64,000 bases of DNA, taken from the NCBI GenBank assembly GCA_024653965.1, contig JANLGW010000024.1, positions 1-64,000 of the forward strand, given 5' to 3'. The notes under the pieces were generated by a model that had not been told where the DNA came from, ran no database searches, and worked only from the letters and a program-made list of their open reading frames with translations. Position 1 is the first letter of the stretch, and each line of letters starts with the position of its first letter. Made by a program: the position numbers and the translations under genes. This DNA comes from Rhodospirillales bacterium (GTDB lineage Bacteria > Pseudomonadota > Alphaproteobacteria > Rhodospirillales > Magnetovibrionaceae). Below are positions 511 through 3,972 of the stretch, one piece after another.

Positions 511-1500
511 ATGACTACGGCACGGCACATTGTTGGGCTTCTGAAGAGCCACATTTCTGGCGATGAGGATCATTTCCTCACCATCGCTATGCAGATGGCC
601 GCCCATGAAGCACGCCAAGGGCACGGAAAGGTTGCACAGGAACTCCGCGAGTTGGTCGATCACGCTAAGCGTAAAAAATCTGCCGTTAAGGTCGTTGGCA
701 GCGGGCCCGTACCCCTAGCCCAACCCAAGGGCGATCTGGCGAACCTCCTCACGGTTCGGTATTCGGAAGTGCGACTTTCCAGCGTCGTTCTGCCAGATGA
801 GACCGAGGCCCGACTACGGCGCACTCTGCTCGAGCAGACCCAACAGAACAATCTCCGGGTCCATGGGCTCGTTCCCCGTCGAAAAATCTTACTGATCGGC
901 CAGCCGGGGTCCGGCAAGACGATGACGGCGGCAGCGCTGGCCGGCGAGCTACATTTGCCGCTGTTTACCATTGTCCTGGACGGGTTGATTTCGAAATTTA
1001 TGGGCGACACGGCCGGAAAGTTACGGCTCGTGTTTGAAGCTATGAAGAACACCCGGGGCGTCTACCTTTTCGACGAATTCGATGCCATCGGTTCGCGCCG
1101 ATCCTCTCAAAACGACGTCGGCGAGATTAGGCGTGTCCTGAATTCTTTTCTCCAGTTTCTGGAACAGGACGATAGCGAAAGCCTTGTGGTGGCAGCGACC
1201 AACCATCCGGAACTGCTCGATCCTGCGTTGTTCCGCCGGTTTGATGATGTGATCGAGTACGGCCTTCCCGACGAGAATCTTCTCGACCGGTTGCTGAGAG
1301 CGCGGCTTGCGCCGTTCAACACACCAAACGTGGCATGGAGGAAGGCTGTCACGGCGGCCGCAGGTCTTAGCTATGCCGAAGCCGGCAGGGCCGCAGACGA
1401 GGCGGCTAAATCTGCTATCCTCAACGGCGGTCTCAAGATCACGACGGCATCGTTAATCGCCGCCATTCGTGAGCGCCAGGAATCGCAACAACAGGTATAA
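511..1500 (+). CDS. ietA: AAA+ ATPase, antitoxin/partner component of an IetAS module
   Basis: A 329-residue single AAA+ domain protein. Walker A GQPGSGKT lies at residues 130-137 (Lys136), Walker B LFDEFD near 186-191 (Asp188, Glu189), and sensor-1 AATNHPELLDPALFRRFDD follows with the arginine-finger region. The first 80 residues are a helical N-domain. It is followed after three bases by a subtilisin-like protease gene, so the two are co-transcribed. This ATPase plus S8 protease pairing is the IetAS module: on Agrobacterium plasmid pTi-SAKURA IetA is the antitoxin of protease toxin IetS, and IetAS homologues have later been reported as anti-phage systems. The ATPase probably restrains, unfolds substrates for, or senses for the protease. 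The symbol rests on domain pairing, not on an alignment. Confidence 0.85.
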   Translation: MTTARHIVGLLKSHISGDEDHFLTIAMQMAAHEARQGHGKVAQELRELVDHAKRKKSAVKVVGSGPVPLAQPKGDLANLLTVRYSEVRLSSVVLPDETEARLRRTLLEQTQQNNLRVHGLVPRRKILLIGQPGSGKTMTAAALAGELHLPLFTIVLDGLISKFMGDTAGKLRLVFEAMKNTRGVYLFDEFDAIGSRRSSQNDVGEIRRVLNSFLQFLEQDDSESLVVAATNHPELLDPALFRRFDDVIEYGLPDENLLDRLLRARLAPFNTPNVAWRKAVTAAAGLSYAEAGRAADEAAKSAILNGGLKITTASLIAAIRERQESQQQV

Positions 1501-1503
1501 CCC

Positions 1504-3972
1504 ATGGCTCAGCCTCCCCGCAATCGCCCCCATCTCTGGATTGAAGGAGGGGGAGACACTGAACGATACACACGGCCACCCCAAAAAATTGAAACGCAAG
1601 GCCCTCCCGCGCGTAATCGTAGGGGGCATGCGGATGCGCTGACGGCAGCTATCGGCGAAGCCATCATTGCCGGCCATGACCAGATCGCTGCGCGCGAAGA
1701 CAATATCGCGGAGGGCATACCCGGCTTCTATCTCGAAATGCAGATTTCCCCTAACCAATGGGAAGCCCTGAAAAGTCTGGGTAACCGCAAGCAGCATATC
1801 GAAGTCGTCACGGTCAAACCGATGCCGGAAGGTGCGGGGGAGCAGGTTATTGAAGCGACCGTGTTTATCCCGGAAACAGCAGAAGCCTATTTTAGAGACA
1901 AAGTCACCGCGTACCGCAACGAGGACACGCGGAATGGGAATCCGAAGAACCAGACTCTAGTCGCAAGCCTTGATACGGTCCGCATCGCATCGGTGCAATC
2001 GTTGTTCACCGATCCTCCGGAACTGTATCCAGCCAACCGGCAGGTCGTCTGGTGGGAAGTTTGGCTTCGAAAAGGGACGTGGGACCGCTTCGTTCGTGTC
2101 GTTGGCCGCTTGAATGTCCAGCGGAAGGACCACACGATCTCCTTCCGTGAGCGCGAGGTGACGCTGGTTCTCGCAAACGAGGAAACGATGTCCCGGATCG
2201 TGCGGAACTGCGATGCTGTGGCGGAACTCCGGATCGCAAAGGACACTCCGGCCTTGTTCATGCAGTTGGGGCCGGCTGAGGCGGTTAATTGGACGGACGA
2301 TATTCTCCATAGGATCGCGGCGCCGGGCGGTGACAGCCCTTCCGTATGTCTGCTCGACAGTGGCGTCACTCAGGCCCATCCTCTGATCCAGCCGGCTCTC
2401 GATCTGCTCGACATGCACACCTACGATCCCGCCTGGGGAACCGGCGACACAGTCCCGCAATGGATGGGGCACGGAACGGCGATGTCTGGGCTAGCGCTCT
2501 ATGGCGACCTTCAGCCGCATATTGTAGGCACGGCGCTCGTCGCGTTATCCCACAAGTTGGAAAGCGTGAAAATTCTTCCTCCCGCAGGACAGAACGATCC
2601 CGATCTGTACGGCGACATCACTCGTCAAGCCGTTGCGAGCGCAGAAATTCAGGCGCCGGACCGTCAAAGGGTCGTTTGCATGGCAGTGACCAGTGCGCCG
2701 GTCCCGTCCGGTCACCCTTCGTCGTGGTCGGCCGCGGTTGACGAATTGTGTTTCGATGAAGACAACCGACGCCTCGTTATCCTCGCTGCCGGTAACATTC
2801 GTGACGGCATCGATCCCGCCGTCTATCCGAACCGAAACGATGTCATGCCGGTAGAAGACCCGGCGCAATCCTGGAACGCGCTCACGGTCGGCGCATTCAC
2901 CGAGAAGGTCAATGTCATTGACCCTGCATATGCCGGATGGGAACCGGTAGCACCGTCAGGAGAAATATCGCCGGCCTCCCGGACGTCGAACGGGTGGCAA
3001 AGACAGTGGCCTGTCAAACCGGATGTGGTTTTCGAAGGGGGGAACTACGCTACAGATGCGGGCGCACCGGCAGAGCCCATCGATGACCTCCAGCTTCTCA
3101 CCACACATAGTCGCCCGAACATTCGCATGTTCGACGTGATGGGCGATACCAGCGCGGCGACTGCCCTTGCTGCGAATTTGGCGGGGCGGATCATGGCGGC
3201 GCGTCCTGAACTGCGACCAGAGACAGTACGCGGCCTCATTGTCCATTCAGCCGAGTGGACTCCGGCCATGTTCGCGCAAATCGAGGGGCAATCCAAGACG
3301 CAGATGGAGGCTATGCTGCGGCGATATGGCTATGGCGTTCCCGACTTTGGCCGCGCGCTTATGAGCGCGATGAACGACCTGACCCTGATGGTTGAGGATG
3401 AATTGACTCCGTTCGAGAAAAGCGGATCGAACGCGAAAACGCGCGACATGAAGGTCCACCGTCTTCCCTGGCCAACGGATGCCCTTACCGAGCTGGGCGA
3501 AATGGAGGTCCAGTTCCGACTGACGTTGTCGTATTTCATCGAGCCGAATCCTGGCGAACGCGGATGGAGCCGTCGCCACAGGTACGCCTCCCACAACCTT
3601 CGCTTCGCGGTCAAACACGCCACCGAATCTCTCGCTGAATTTCGTCGACGGATCAACAAGGTCGCTCGAGAGGAAGAGGAGGGGCTTCCAGTCGGCCCAG
3701 TGGCGGCCGACAAATGGCTGCTGGGGCCAAAGATCCAGACACGGGGTTCAATCCACTCGGACTGGTGGAGCGGTTCGGCTGCGGATCTTGCCGAACGCGA
3801 TGCCATCGGGATTTTTCCCGTTGGGGGTTGGTGGAAGGAAAAACCCTATTTGGGGCGTGCTGACACGGCTACCCGTTATTCCCTGATCGTCTCGATCAAG
3901 GCTCCGGGGGCAGTCACCGATATCTATACGCCAGTGGCGAACCAGATCGCGGTTCCGGTCGTCGTTGGTTAA
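1504..3972 (+). CDS. ietS: Subtilisin-like (S8) serine protease, toxin/effector of an IetAS module
   Basis: An 822-residue protein with no signal peptide, so probably cytoplasmic. The catalytic triad of family S8 is complete: Asp285 in CLLDSGV, His323 in MGHGTAMSG, Ser550 in GDTSAAT; Asn431 in AAGNIRDG is the likely oxyanion residue. About 280 residues precede the protease domain and about 220 follow it; both are unlike secreted subtilisins and are expected to carry partner or target recognition. The gene starts three bases after ietA. In the described IetAS pair the protease is the toxic part. It lies beside a repeated element at the edge of a conserved block, suggesting acquisition. Its substrate is unknown. 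Confidence 0.85.
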   Translation: MAQPPRNRPHLWIEGGGDTERYTRPPQKIETQGPPARNRRGHADALTAAIGEAIIAGHDQIAAREDNIAEGIPGFYLEMQISPNQWEALKSLGNRKQHIEVVTVKPMPEGAGEQVIEATVFIPETAEAYFRDKVTAYRNEDTRNGNPKNQTLVASLDTVRIASVQSLFTDPPELYPANRQVVWWEVWLRKGTWDRFVRVVGRLNVQRKDHTISFREREVTLVLANEETMSRIVRNCDAVAELRIAKDTPALFMQLGPAEAVNWTDDILHRIAAPGGDSPSVCLLDSGVTQAHPLIQPALDLLDMHTYDPAWGTGDTVPQWMGHGTAMSGLALYGDLQPHIVGTALVALSHKLESVKILPPAGQNDPDLYGDITRQAVASAEIQAPDRQRVVCMAVTSAPVPSGHPSSWSAAVDELCFDEDNRRLVILAAGNIRDGIDPAVYPNRNDVMPVEDPAQSWNALTVGAFTEKVNVIDPAYAGWEPVAPSGEISPASRTSNGWQRQWPVKPDVVFEGGNYATDAGAPAEPIDDLQLLTTHSRPNIRMFDVMGDTSAATALAANLAGRIMAARPELRPETVRGLIVHSAEWTPAMFAQIEGQSKTQMEAMLRRYGYGVPDFGRALMSAMNDLTLMVEDELTPFEKSGSNAKTRDMKVHRLPWPTDALTELGEMEVQFRLTLSYFIEPNPGERGWSRRHRYASHNLRFAVKHATESLAEFRRRINKVAREEEEGLPVGPVAADKWLLGPKIQTRGSIHSDWWSGSAADLAERDAIGIFPVGGWWKEKPYLGRADTATRYSLIVSIKAPGAVTDIYTPVANQIAVPVVVG

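What the first reader, a model, noticed from the sequence alone, without database searches (positions are those of the whole stretch)
511..3972. IetAS-type AAA+ ATPase and subtilisin-like protease module on a chromosome edge
Two adjacent genes give a complete AAA+ site (Lys136, Glu189) and a complete S8 triad (Asp285, His323, Ser550), with three bases between them. Pairing and order match IetAS, known first as a plasmid-stability toxin-antitoxin pair and later reported as an anti-phage system. The protease carries 280 residues before and 220 after its catalytic domain with no signal peptide, so the target and the trigger are open questions.
Basis: partly seen in the sequence, partly recalled or inferred. 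Interest (0 to 1): 0.7.

Follow-up and report, generated by a model that had tools for sequence, protein, structure and literature searches.

The report
IetAS protease toxin-antitoxin pair
Two neighbouring genes encode an already known bacterial self-poison kit, a protein-cutting toxin and the ATP-driven partner that restrains it, in a stretch of DNA beside a tRNA gene that looks acquired rather than core.

Summary
IetA (511-1500, 329 aa) has a complete AAA+ site, IetS (1504-3972, 822 aa) a complete S8 triad; three bases separate them. The name is right: PADLOC calls both, and against the founding pTiC58 pair IetA is 65% and IetS 48% identical over full length, with the same 3-base gap. Both pairs miss the cut-offs of two NCBI models by similar margins.

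The pair is accessory: no IetS match in 4 same-genus and 13 same-family genomes, 8 of them under 90% complete. It lies on the 3' side of a tRNA-Ser gene near rplU-rpmA-obg, where two same-family relatives carry tyrosine integrases. 'Chromosome edge' is a contig edge.

Best mechanism, mainly by homology: free IetS is a toxic cytosolic subtilase; IetA, a PAN/FtsH-type ATPase, restrains it; loss or diversion of IetA frees it, giving element retention and abortive phage defence. How IetA restrains, the trigger and the target are not shown here. New member of a known kind; modest interest. The fold of the IetS N-terminus and its handling by IetA stay open.

The parts
511..1500 (+). ietA: AAA+ ATPase, 329 aa. 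N-terminal three-helix bundle (res 2-59), low-confidence linker about 60-73, PAN/FtsH-like AAA+ module (79-329). K136, E189, N231, R242/R243; F163-M164-G165 at the pore-loop 1 position (pore-loop label recalled)
1504..3972 (+). ietS: subtilisin-like protease toxin, 822 aa. N-terminal region 1-262 (two strand-helix runs, my reading of the model), S8 domain about 263-622 (D285, H323, N431, S550), C-terminal beta domain about 623-822 aligned with that of KP-43; no signal peptide
408..417 (+). TTCAGAAGTA, identical upstream of ietA in Magnetospirillum fulvum (L089) and an IMG/VR contig (L169): candidate promoter or operator element, function untested
474..490 (+). short hairpin GGGAGG-GTACC-CCTCCC, 20 bases before the ietA ATG; the two homologues have a different short G-rich hairpin at the same place (read by eye, not folded)
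4037..9535 (-). rest of the same accessory stretch: HD-GYP response regulator, Cache/histidine-kinase hybrid, CMD-family protein, MazF-like and MazE-like genes; no orthologue in the relatives' rplU-obg stretches examined
9651..9740 (-). tRNA-Ser(CGA), found near rplU in 6 of the 8 relatives scanned (11 fetched); the window's DNA similarity to those six stops at its 3' (left) end, and integrases lie there in some: likely integration hotspot

Best explanation
The pair is a horizontally acquired IetAS module. IetS is a cytosolic subtilisin-type protease that is toxic when free. IetA is an AAA+ protein with the conserved residues of an ATP-driven, substrate-threading unfoldase, and it restrains IetS, probably by acting on IetS itself. 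If IetA disappears (loss of the plasmid or island) or is diverted (for example by phage replication proteins), IetS cuts host proteins and the cell stops or dies. That keeps the element in the population and aborts phage infection. Shown here: both enzymes' active sites, their family, their near-constant linkage and their accessory location. Shown in the literature for homologues: free toxin harms, the AAA protein neutralises it, and in one case losing only the antitoxin is lethal. Inferred: that IetA uses its ATPase to restrain IetS, and what triggers release.
For: Family. Invariant catalytic residues on both sides, so both activities appear to be needed. Of 127 fetched loci, 117 have at least 600 bases upstream of IetS; IetA is upstream on the same strand in 116, within -40 to +120 bases in 111, and in the other 5 the called IetS ORF is short. 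IetA and IetS distances co-vary: r = 0.92 over 97 pairs, largest of 1000 permutations 0.24. IetA's AAA+ module matches PAN (3h4m, Z 26.2, rmsd 2.5, 251 aligned) and FtsH (2ce7, Z 25.0, rmsd 2.2, 240 aligned), with F or Y at the pore-loop position in 61 of 65. Homologue data: SgiT toxicity within 30 min and neutralisation by SgiA in E. coli (PMC5006074, section 4 read); mycoplasma T133 neutralised by A132, and lethality of losing the antitoxin alone in JCVI-syn2.0 (PMC8562856, passages). Mobility.
Against: No result here shows IetA touching IetS; a complex was not modelled. SgiAT gave no post-segregational killing from its own promoter (PMC5006074), so the addiction reading is not uniform in the family. 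The anti-phage role rests on family naming and short mentions in papers, not on a test of this branch. In the P. aeruginosa study seen, no lysogen of the IetAS-carrying Pf phage was obtained, so its link to resistance is statistical (PMC11878078). The pair-distance correlation is also expected from co-inheritance alone.
Confidence: 0.6

Rival explanations
1. Delivery model: IetA is an unfoldase that feeds specific (phage or host) proteins to IetS, as PAN or the FtsH AAA domain feeds its protease; the pair is a regulated ATP-dependent protease rather than toxin plus restraint.
For: IetA's closest folds are the proteasome/FtsH unfoldases and its pore-loop aromatic is kept in 61 of 65; both active sites are invariant.
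Against: In two homologous systems the protease is toxic without the ATPase and the ATPase cancels it (PMC5006074, PMC8562856). The solved structures that match IetS best are single-chain subtilases such as KP-43, not a closed chamber. An HbYX-type docking end (recalled from proteasomal ATPases) is present in 1 of 65 IetA and not in the window's.
Confidence: 0.25
2. The pair is now mainly a retention (addiction) cassette of the integrated element, with little or no phage defence in this host (not exclusive with the restraint mechanism above).
For: Many relatives are on plasmids: 497 of 72,556 records, 347 of them typed conjugative. The window copy shares its stretch with a second TA pair, MazEF-like, at a tRNA hotspot. 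The family was first described as plasmid stability (title of the 2009 paper in reference lists).
Against: Defence-type genes (type I specificity subunits, TIR, DndB, AbiEi) occur near some relatives (no control set was run). SgiAT gave no post-segregational killing from its own promoter.
Confidence: 0.35
3. It is a core AAA+/protease housekeeping system.
For: Chromosomal context near rplU-rpmA-obg.
Against: No IetS match in 4 same-genus and 13 same-family genomes, although 8 of those 17 are 59-86% complete; 17 of 296 other genomes of the order have a match. The flanks vary.
Confidence: 0.02

Closest known systems
IetAS of plasmid pTiC58 (Agrobacterium fabrum C58; ATU_RS23410/23415)
   Same: Same gene order and 3-base gap, IetA 65% and IetS 48% identical over full length, triad and P-loop aligned, same PADLOC best models
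   Different: Chromosomal contig rather than plasmid; neighbours differ (MazEF, HD-GYP, kinase here)
SgiAT of Salmonella Genomic Island 1
   Same: AAA antitoxin followed by S8 toxin; island-borne; described as TA (PMC5006074)
   Different: By that paper S026 is 50% and S025 36% identical to the pTiC58 proteins, so the window pair is closer to pTiC58 than SgiAT is; not compared with the window directly
Mycoplasma A132/T133 AAA-ATPase/subtilisin TA
   Same: ATPase neutralises S8 protease; antitoxin-only loss lethal (PMC8562856, passages)
   Different: Very distant host; 353 and 757 aa as given in the paper; not compared by sequence here
NCBIfam IteA/IteS anti-phage branch (NF042959, NF042956)
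   Same: Best NCBIfam models for both genes
   Different: 199 of the required 510 bits and 54 of 900; the pTiC58 founder likewise misses with 199 and 40, so the models describe another branch

Membership tests
IetAS | AAA+ ATPase matching IetA profiles | tested here: met
   PADLOC PDLC02196 E 2e-71, residues 2-326 of 329
IetAS | S8 protease matching IetS profiles | tested here: met
   PADLOC PDLC02198 E 5.5e-31, residues 266-761; the founder scores 4.8e-25 on the same model
IetAS | Operon order ietA-ietS | tested here: met
   Window gap 3 bases; pTiC58 gap 3 bases; IetA upstream in 116 of the 117 relatives' loci with enough upstream DNA
IetAS | Complete Walker A/B and D-H-S triad | tested here: met
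IetAS | Homology to the founding pTiC58 pair over full length | tested here: met
   65% over 328 aa, 48% over 831 aligned columns
IetAS | IetS toxic, IetA neutralising | not testable with these tools
   Known for homologues only
IetAS | Anti-phage activity | not testable with these tools
   Needs phage challenge
NCBIfam IteA/IteS equivalogs | Score above the curated cut-offs 510 and 900 bits | tested here: not met
   199.2 and 54 bits; founder pair 198.8 and 39.9
Inhibitor_I9 (subtilisin propeptide) for the IetS N-terminal modules | Sequence match to I9 | tested here: not met
   PF05922 is not among the 25 families listed (of 42 and of 38 matched) for 77 members each; hhalign against 19 I9 domains gives probability 0.1-0.2%
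Inhibitor_I9 (subtilisin propeptide) for the IetS N-terminal modules | Propeptide-like fold before the catalytic domain | tested here: inconclusive
   Strand-helix order in the model and pro-subtilases leading the Foldseek list, but rmsd over 20 A in the first 8 rows and the N-terminal part not covered by VIA
Housekeeping AAA protease partner (PAN/FtsH) | Conserved presence in close relatives | tested here: not met
   IetS in 0 of 17 same-family genomes, 9 of them at least 90% complete

The most novel reading that the evidence does not exclude
IetS is a cytosolic zymogen-like subtilase: its first 262 residues form two tandem beta-alpha-beta modules, placed like a subtilisin prodomain but not detectably homologous to it. 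IetA holds the protease in check by pulling on these modules through its pore. Phage replication proteins that occupy IetA would end the pulling and free the protease, which would make IetAS a motor-held zymogen toxin, a mode of antitoxin action distinct from simple binding.
Probability: 0.15. Interest if true: 0.6.

Novelty: new member of a known kind. Interest (0 to 1): 0.25.

Why it matters
The pair adds one more well-supported chromosomal copy of a widespread family and links it to a tRNA-Ser integration hotspot in this lineage. Two papers of 2023 and 2025, seen in passages, still call the IetAS mechanism undescribed. The alignments made here give concrete positions for testing how an ATP-driven partner restrains a protease toxin: invariant catalytic residues in both proteins, a pore-loop aromatic in IetA, and a variable N-terminus in IetS.

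Tried and rejected
Core-gene reading: rejected (0 of 17 same-family genomes; 8 of those 17 are under 90% complete, so a few absences may be assembly gaps). Of the 17 other order genomes with a match, three (G031, G068, G259) are distant partial matches at E 7e-30 to 1e-14. Type VII mycosin or FtsH/PAN membership: generic domain matches well below cut-offs.

Flank comparison limits: of the 11 rplU-obg stretches, 7 (L048, L050, L051, L052, L053, L055, L056) reach at least 3 kb past the tRNA or rplU; L046, L047, L049 and L054 end within about 0.5 kb of the tRNA or rplU because their contigs stop. Two scanned stretches (L053, L055) have no tRNA there and three (L047, L054, L056) were not scanned for tRNA.

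Far end of the island: not found. No integrase lies on C106 (5 PF00589 matches in the genome, all on other contigs). Other matches to the tRNA 3' end include tRNA-Ser(GCT) on C20 and tRNA-Ser(GGA) on C56; the C12 match and two weak ones were not checked. The FAD-oxidase gene that borders the element in G009 (L050) has no clear orthologue here (25-29% identity). The kinase gene was a useless anchor: 31-57 matches in each of 18 genomes.

I9 propeptide homology of the IetS N-terminus: rejected at sequence level. Repeat between the two N-terminal modules: only 19-20 aligned columns, probability 6-8%, not counted as evidence. MIT-like reading of the IetA N-terminal bundle: PF04212 was not among the 25 families listed (of 44), and no PDB match was below E 0.05. 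The fold searches did not cover IetA 1-70 or IetS 1-262. Searches for I9 subtilases in the order gave 0 of 150 genomes, so the I9 domains came from the 26 of 398 genomes of the phylum with a match (19 domains used).

Decay asymmetry: IetS short with IetA full-length in 13 loci, 2 of them (L141, L203) at contig ends, so 11; the reverse away from contig ends in 1 (L166); both short away from contig ends in 2 (L121, L136). IetS is 2.5 times longer and several loci are near-identical Mesorhizobium, so this is no test.

Neighbour survey: no control set, only descriptive. From 80 genome-contig loci, 51 had IetS over 600 aa and enough upstream DNA, 40 remained below 90% identity in IetS; up to two called ORFs a side gave 135, ORFs over 900 aa dropped.

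Rows dropped for the alignments: of 127 loci, IetS of 780-870 aa (103, reduced to 76 at 75% identity) and IetA of 310-350 aa (110, reduced to 64) were used. Papers asked for and not held.
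Full report
What is there. Two adjacent plus-strand ORFs at 511-1500 (329 aa) and 1504-3972 (822 aa) are real genes. The first has the AAA domain (PF00004, 2.2e-31), the second Peptidase_S8 (PF00082, 1.2e-63) with 275 residues before and 211 after it. Neither protein has a convincing membrane or signal segment: the best 19-residue hydropathy means are 1.55 and 1.22.

Which family. PADLOC assigns IetA (2e-71) and IetS (5.5e-31). Two NCBIfam equivalog models named 'IteA' and 'IteS' match but fall far short of their cut-offs (199 of 510 bits, 54 of 900). 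As a control, the founding pair on pTiC58 was scanned the same way: 199 and 40 bits, with the same PADLOC best models. So missing those cut-offs does not exclude membership; the models describe another branch. Direct comparison gives 65% identity for IetA over 328 residues and 48% for IetS over 831 columns, and pTiC58 has the identical 3-base gap. Both proteins also match PHROGs of unknown function (phrog_3757, 2.4e-88; phrog_3964, 4.4e-43).

How widespread. tblastn of IetS finds 497 of 72,556 plasmid records, 375 with at least 80% of the query in one place and 347 typed conjugative. It finds 6 of 50,697 phage records, one of them over at least 80%. Of the 127 loci kept from those two scans, 117 have at least 600 bases upstream of IetS. 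IetA is upstream on the same strand in 116: within -40 to +120 bases in 111, further off in 5 where the called IetS ORF is short. One, L138, has a truncated IetS and no IetA. The median gap is 12 bases over 101 pairs. Distances of IetA and IetS co-vary (r 0.92, 97 pairs, permutation maximum 0.24), as expected of genes that travel together.

Where it sits. The window starts at base 1 of contig C106 (82,254 bases, 153 contigs in the assembly), so the 'edge' is an assembly edge. None of the 4 same-genus and 13 same-family genomes has an IetS match, though 8 of these 17 are 59-86% complete; of 297 genomes of the order 18 match, including this one, three of them only distantly. Between the pair and rplU-rpmA-obg lie an HD-GYP response regulator, a hybrid kinase, a CMD-family gene, MazF-like and MazE-like genes and tRNA-Ser(CGA) at 9651-9740. 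In 11 fetched rplU-obg stretches of relatives (2.4-17 kb; 7 reach at least 3 kb past the tRNA or rplU) none of the genes left of the tRNA has an orthologue; only weak kinase and regulator paralogues appear. The same tRNA was found in 6 of 8 relatives' stretches scanned. In those six the window's DNA similarity stops at or within 6 bases of the tRNA 3' end, and by eye the DNA beyond differs among them, one having only 4 bases left on its contig. Two have a tyrosine integrase there (G013, 3.4e-31; G015, 5.3e-17) and one a DUF6538 protein, a family recalled as integrase-associated. In the same-genus genome G002 an ORF starting MATFTKRKGK begins there, read by eye against MATFTKREGK of the G013 integrase. 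G009 has a second copy of the tRNA 3' part about 3.1 kb away. So ietAS lies in an accessory stretch at a likely tRNA-Ser integration hotspot; its own integrase and far end were not found.

Anatomy. The IetA model (pLDDT 91.9, pTM 0.76) is an N-terminal three-helix bundle, a weakly predicted linker and an AAA+ module. That module aligns with PAN (3h4m, Z 26.2, rmsd 2.5, 251 aligned) and FtsH (2ce7, Z 25.0, rmsd 2.2, 240 aligned); rows within 1 Z are tied. Residues 163-165 (F-M-G) stand where PAN and FtsH have the pore-loop aromatic (assignment recalled); position 163 is F or Y in 61 of 65 and G165 is invariant. An HbYX-type C-terminus occurs in 1 of 65 and not in the window's protein. The IetS model (pLDDT 89.9, pTM 0.77) has an S8 domain followed by a beta domain, aligned together with KP-43 (1wmd, Z 26.0, rmsd 2.9, 374 aligned, model 278-798). 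Its first 262 residues show two runs of strands and helices in roughly beta-alpha-beta-beta-alpha-beta order (about 74-161 and 182-244, my reading). The first eight Foldseek rows are 3afg (ProN-Tk-SP, 1.2e-17), 3qfh and 3t41 (EpiP; that these chains include the propeptide is recalled), but with rmsd above 20 A. At sequence level no I9 relation was found. These modules are the most variable part of IetS apart from the first 65 residues (mean pairwise column identity 0.31 and 0.32, against 0.44 for the catalytic and 0.45 for the C-terminal part).

How it most likely works. For SgiAT of SGI1 the protease is toxic in E. coli within 30 minutes and the ATPase cancels this; the operon gave no post-segregational killing from its own promoter (PMC5006074, section 4 read). 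For the mycoplasma pair the protease reduces E. coli counts by 3 to 5 logs and the ATPase neutralises it; in JCVI-syn2.0 deletion of the ATPase alone was lethal while deletion of both or of the protease alone was viable, as that paper reports of earlier work (PMC8562856, passages). Two papers mention ietAS among systems linked to phage core proteins: one says phage replication components activate it (PMC10732053, one passage), the other lists it in a table of phage evasion by changed functional proteins (PMC10286901, one passage); the primary study is not held. Taken together: free IetS is the toxin, IetA the restraint, and loss or diversion of IetA the switch. That IetA restrains by ATP-driven threading is my inference from its conserved motor residues.

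What is not known in print. Passages of PMC9958689 (2023) and PMC11878078 (2025) call the mechanism undescribed. My searches showed no paper that gives it, but they cover only CC0/CC BY/CC BY-SA papers in PMC, no preprints, and I saw listings, passages and single sections, not whole texts. The founding 2009 paper is not held, and the 2020 defence screen is recalled only.

Verdict. A well-supported, ordinary member of the IetAS family in a mobile context. The pair deserves little priority on its own. The IetS N-terminus and the way a motor protein holds a protease in check are the part worth testing.

Noticed in passing
window 106-186: 80-base dispersed repeat near the contig edge: 7 further copies at 83-95% identity and 32 weaker or partial matches in this genome (E up to 10); it may explain why the contig breaks there.
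   Followed up: partly
window 8967-9535: MazE-like/MazF-like pair directly on the 3' side of tRNA-Ser(CGA), a second TA module in the same accessory stretch.
   Followed up: partly
window 408-417: TTCAGAAGTA is identical upstream of ietA in the window, M. fulvum (L089) and an IMG/VR contig (L169), inside otherwise diverged leaders; possible operator.
   Followed up: partly
L050 4820-4879 and 8018-8107: A relative (G009) has a second copy of the tRNA-Ser 3' part about 3.1 kb from the tRNA; the one ORF between them that was scanned has no Pfam match.
   Followed up: partly
L102, L103, L104, L135, L161: Mesorhizobium loci with a broken IetS frame beside a full-length IetA; would fit toxin decay but is not a test (length bias, relatedness).
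   Followed up: partly
L089 45-1958: In Magnetospirillum fulvum, one of the most similar pairs, a TIR-domain protein (PADLOC TIR-NLR 2.1e-13) lies about 4 kb upstream of ietAS.
   Followed up: no
L221 5031-5624: DUF6088-family gene immediately upstream of the pTiC58 ietAS pair; AbiEi-type regulators also occur near two other relatives.
   Followed up: no
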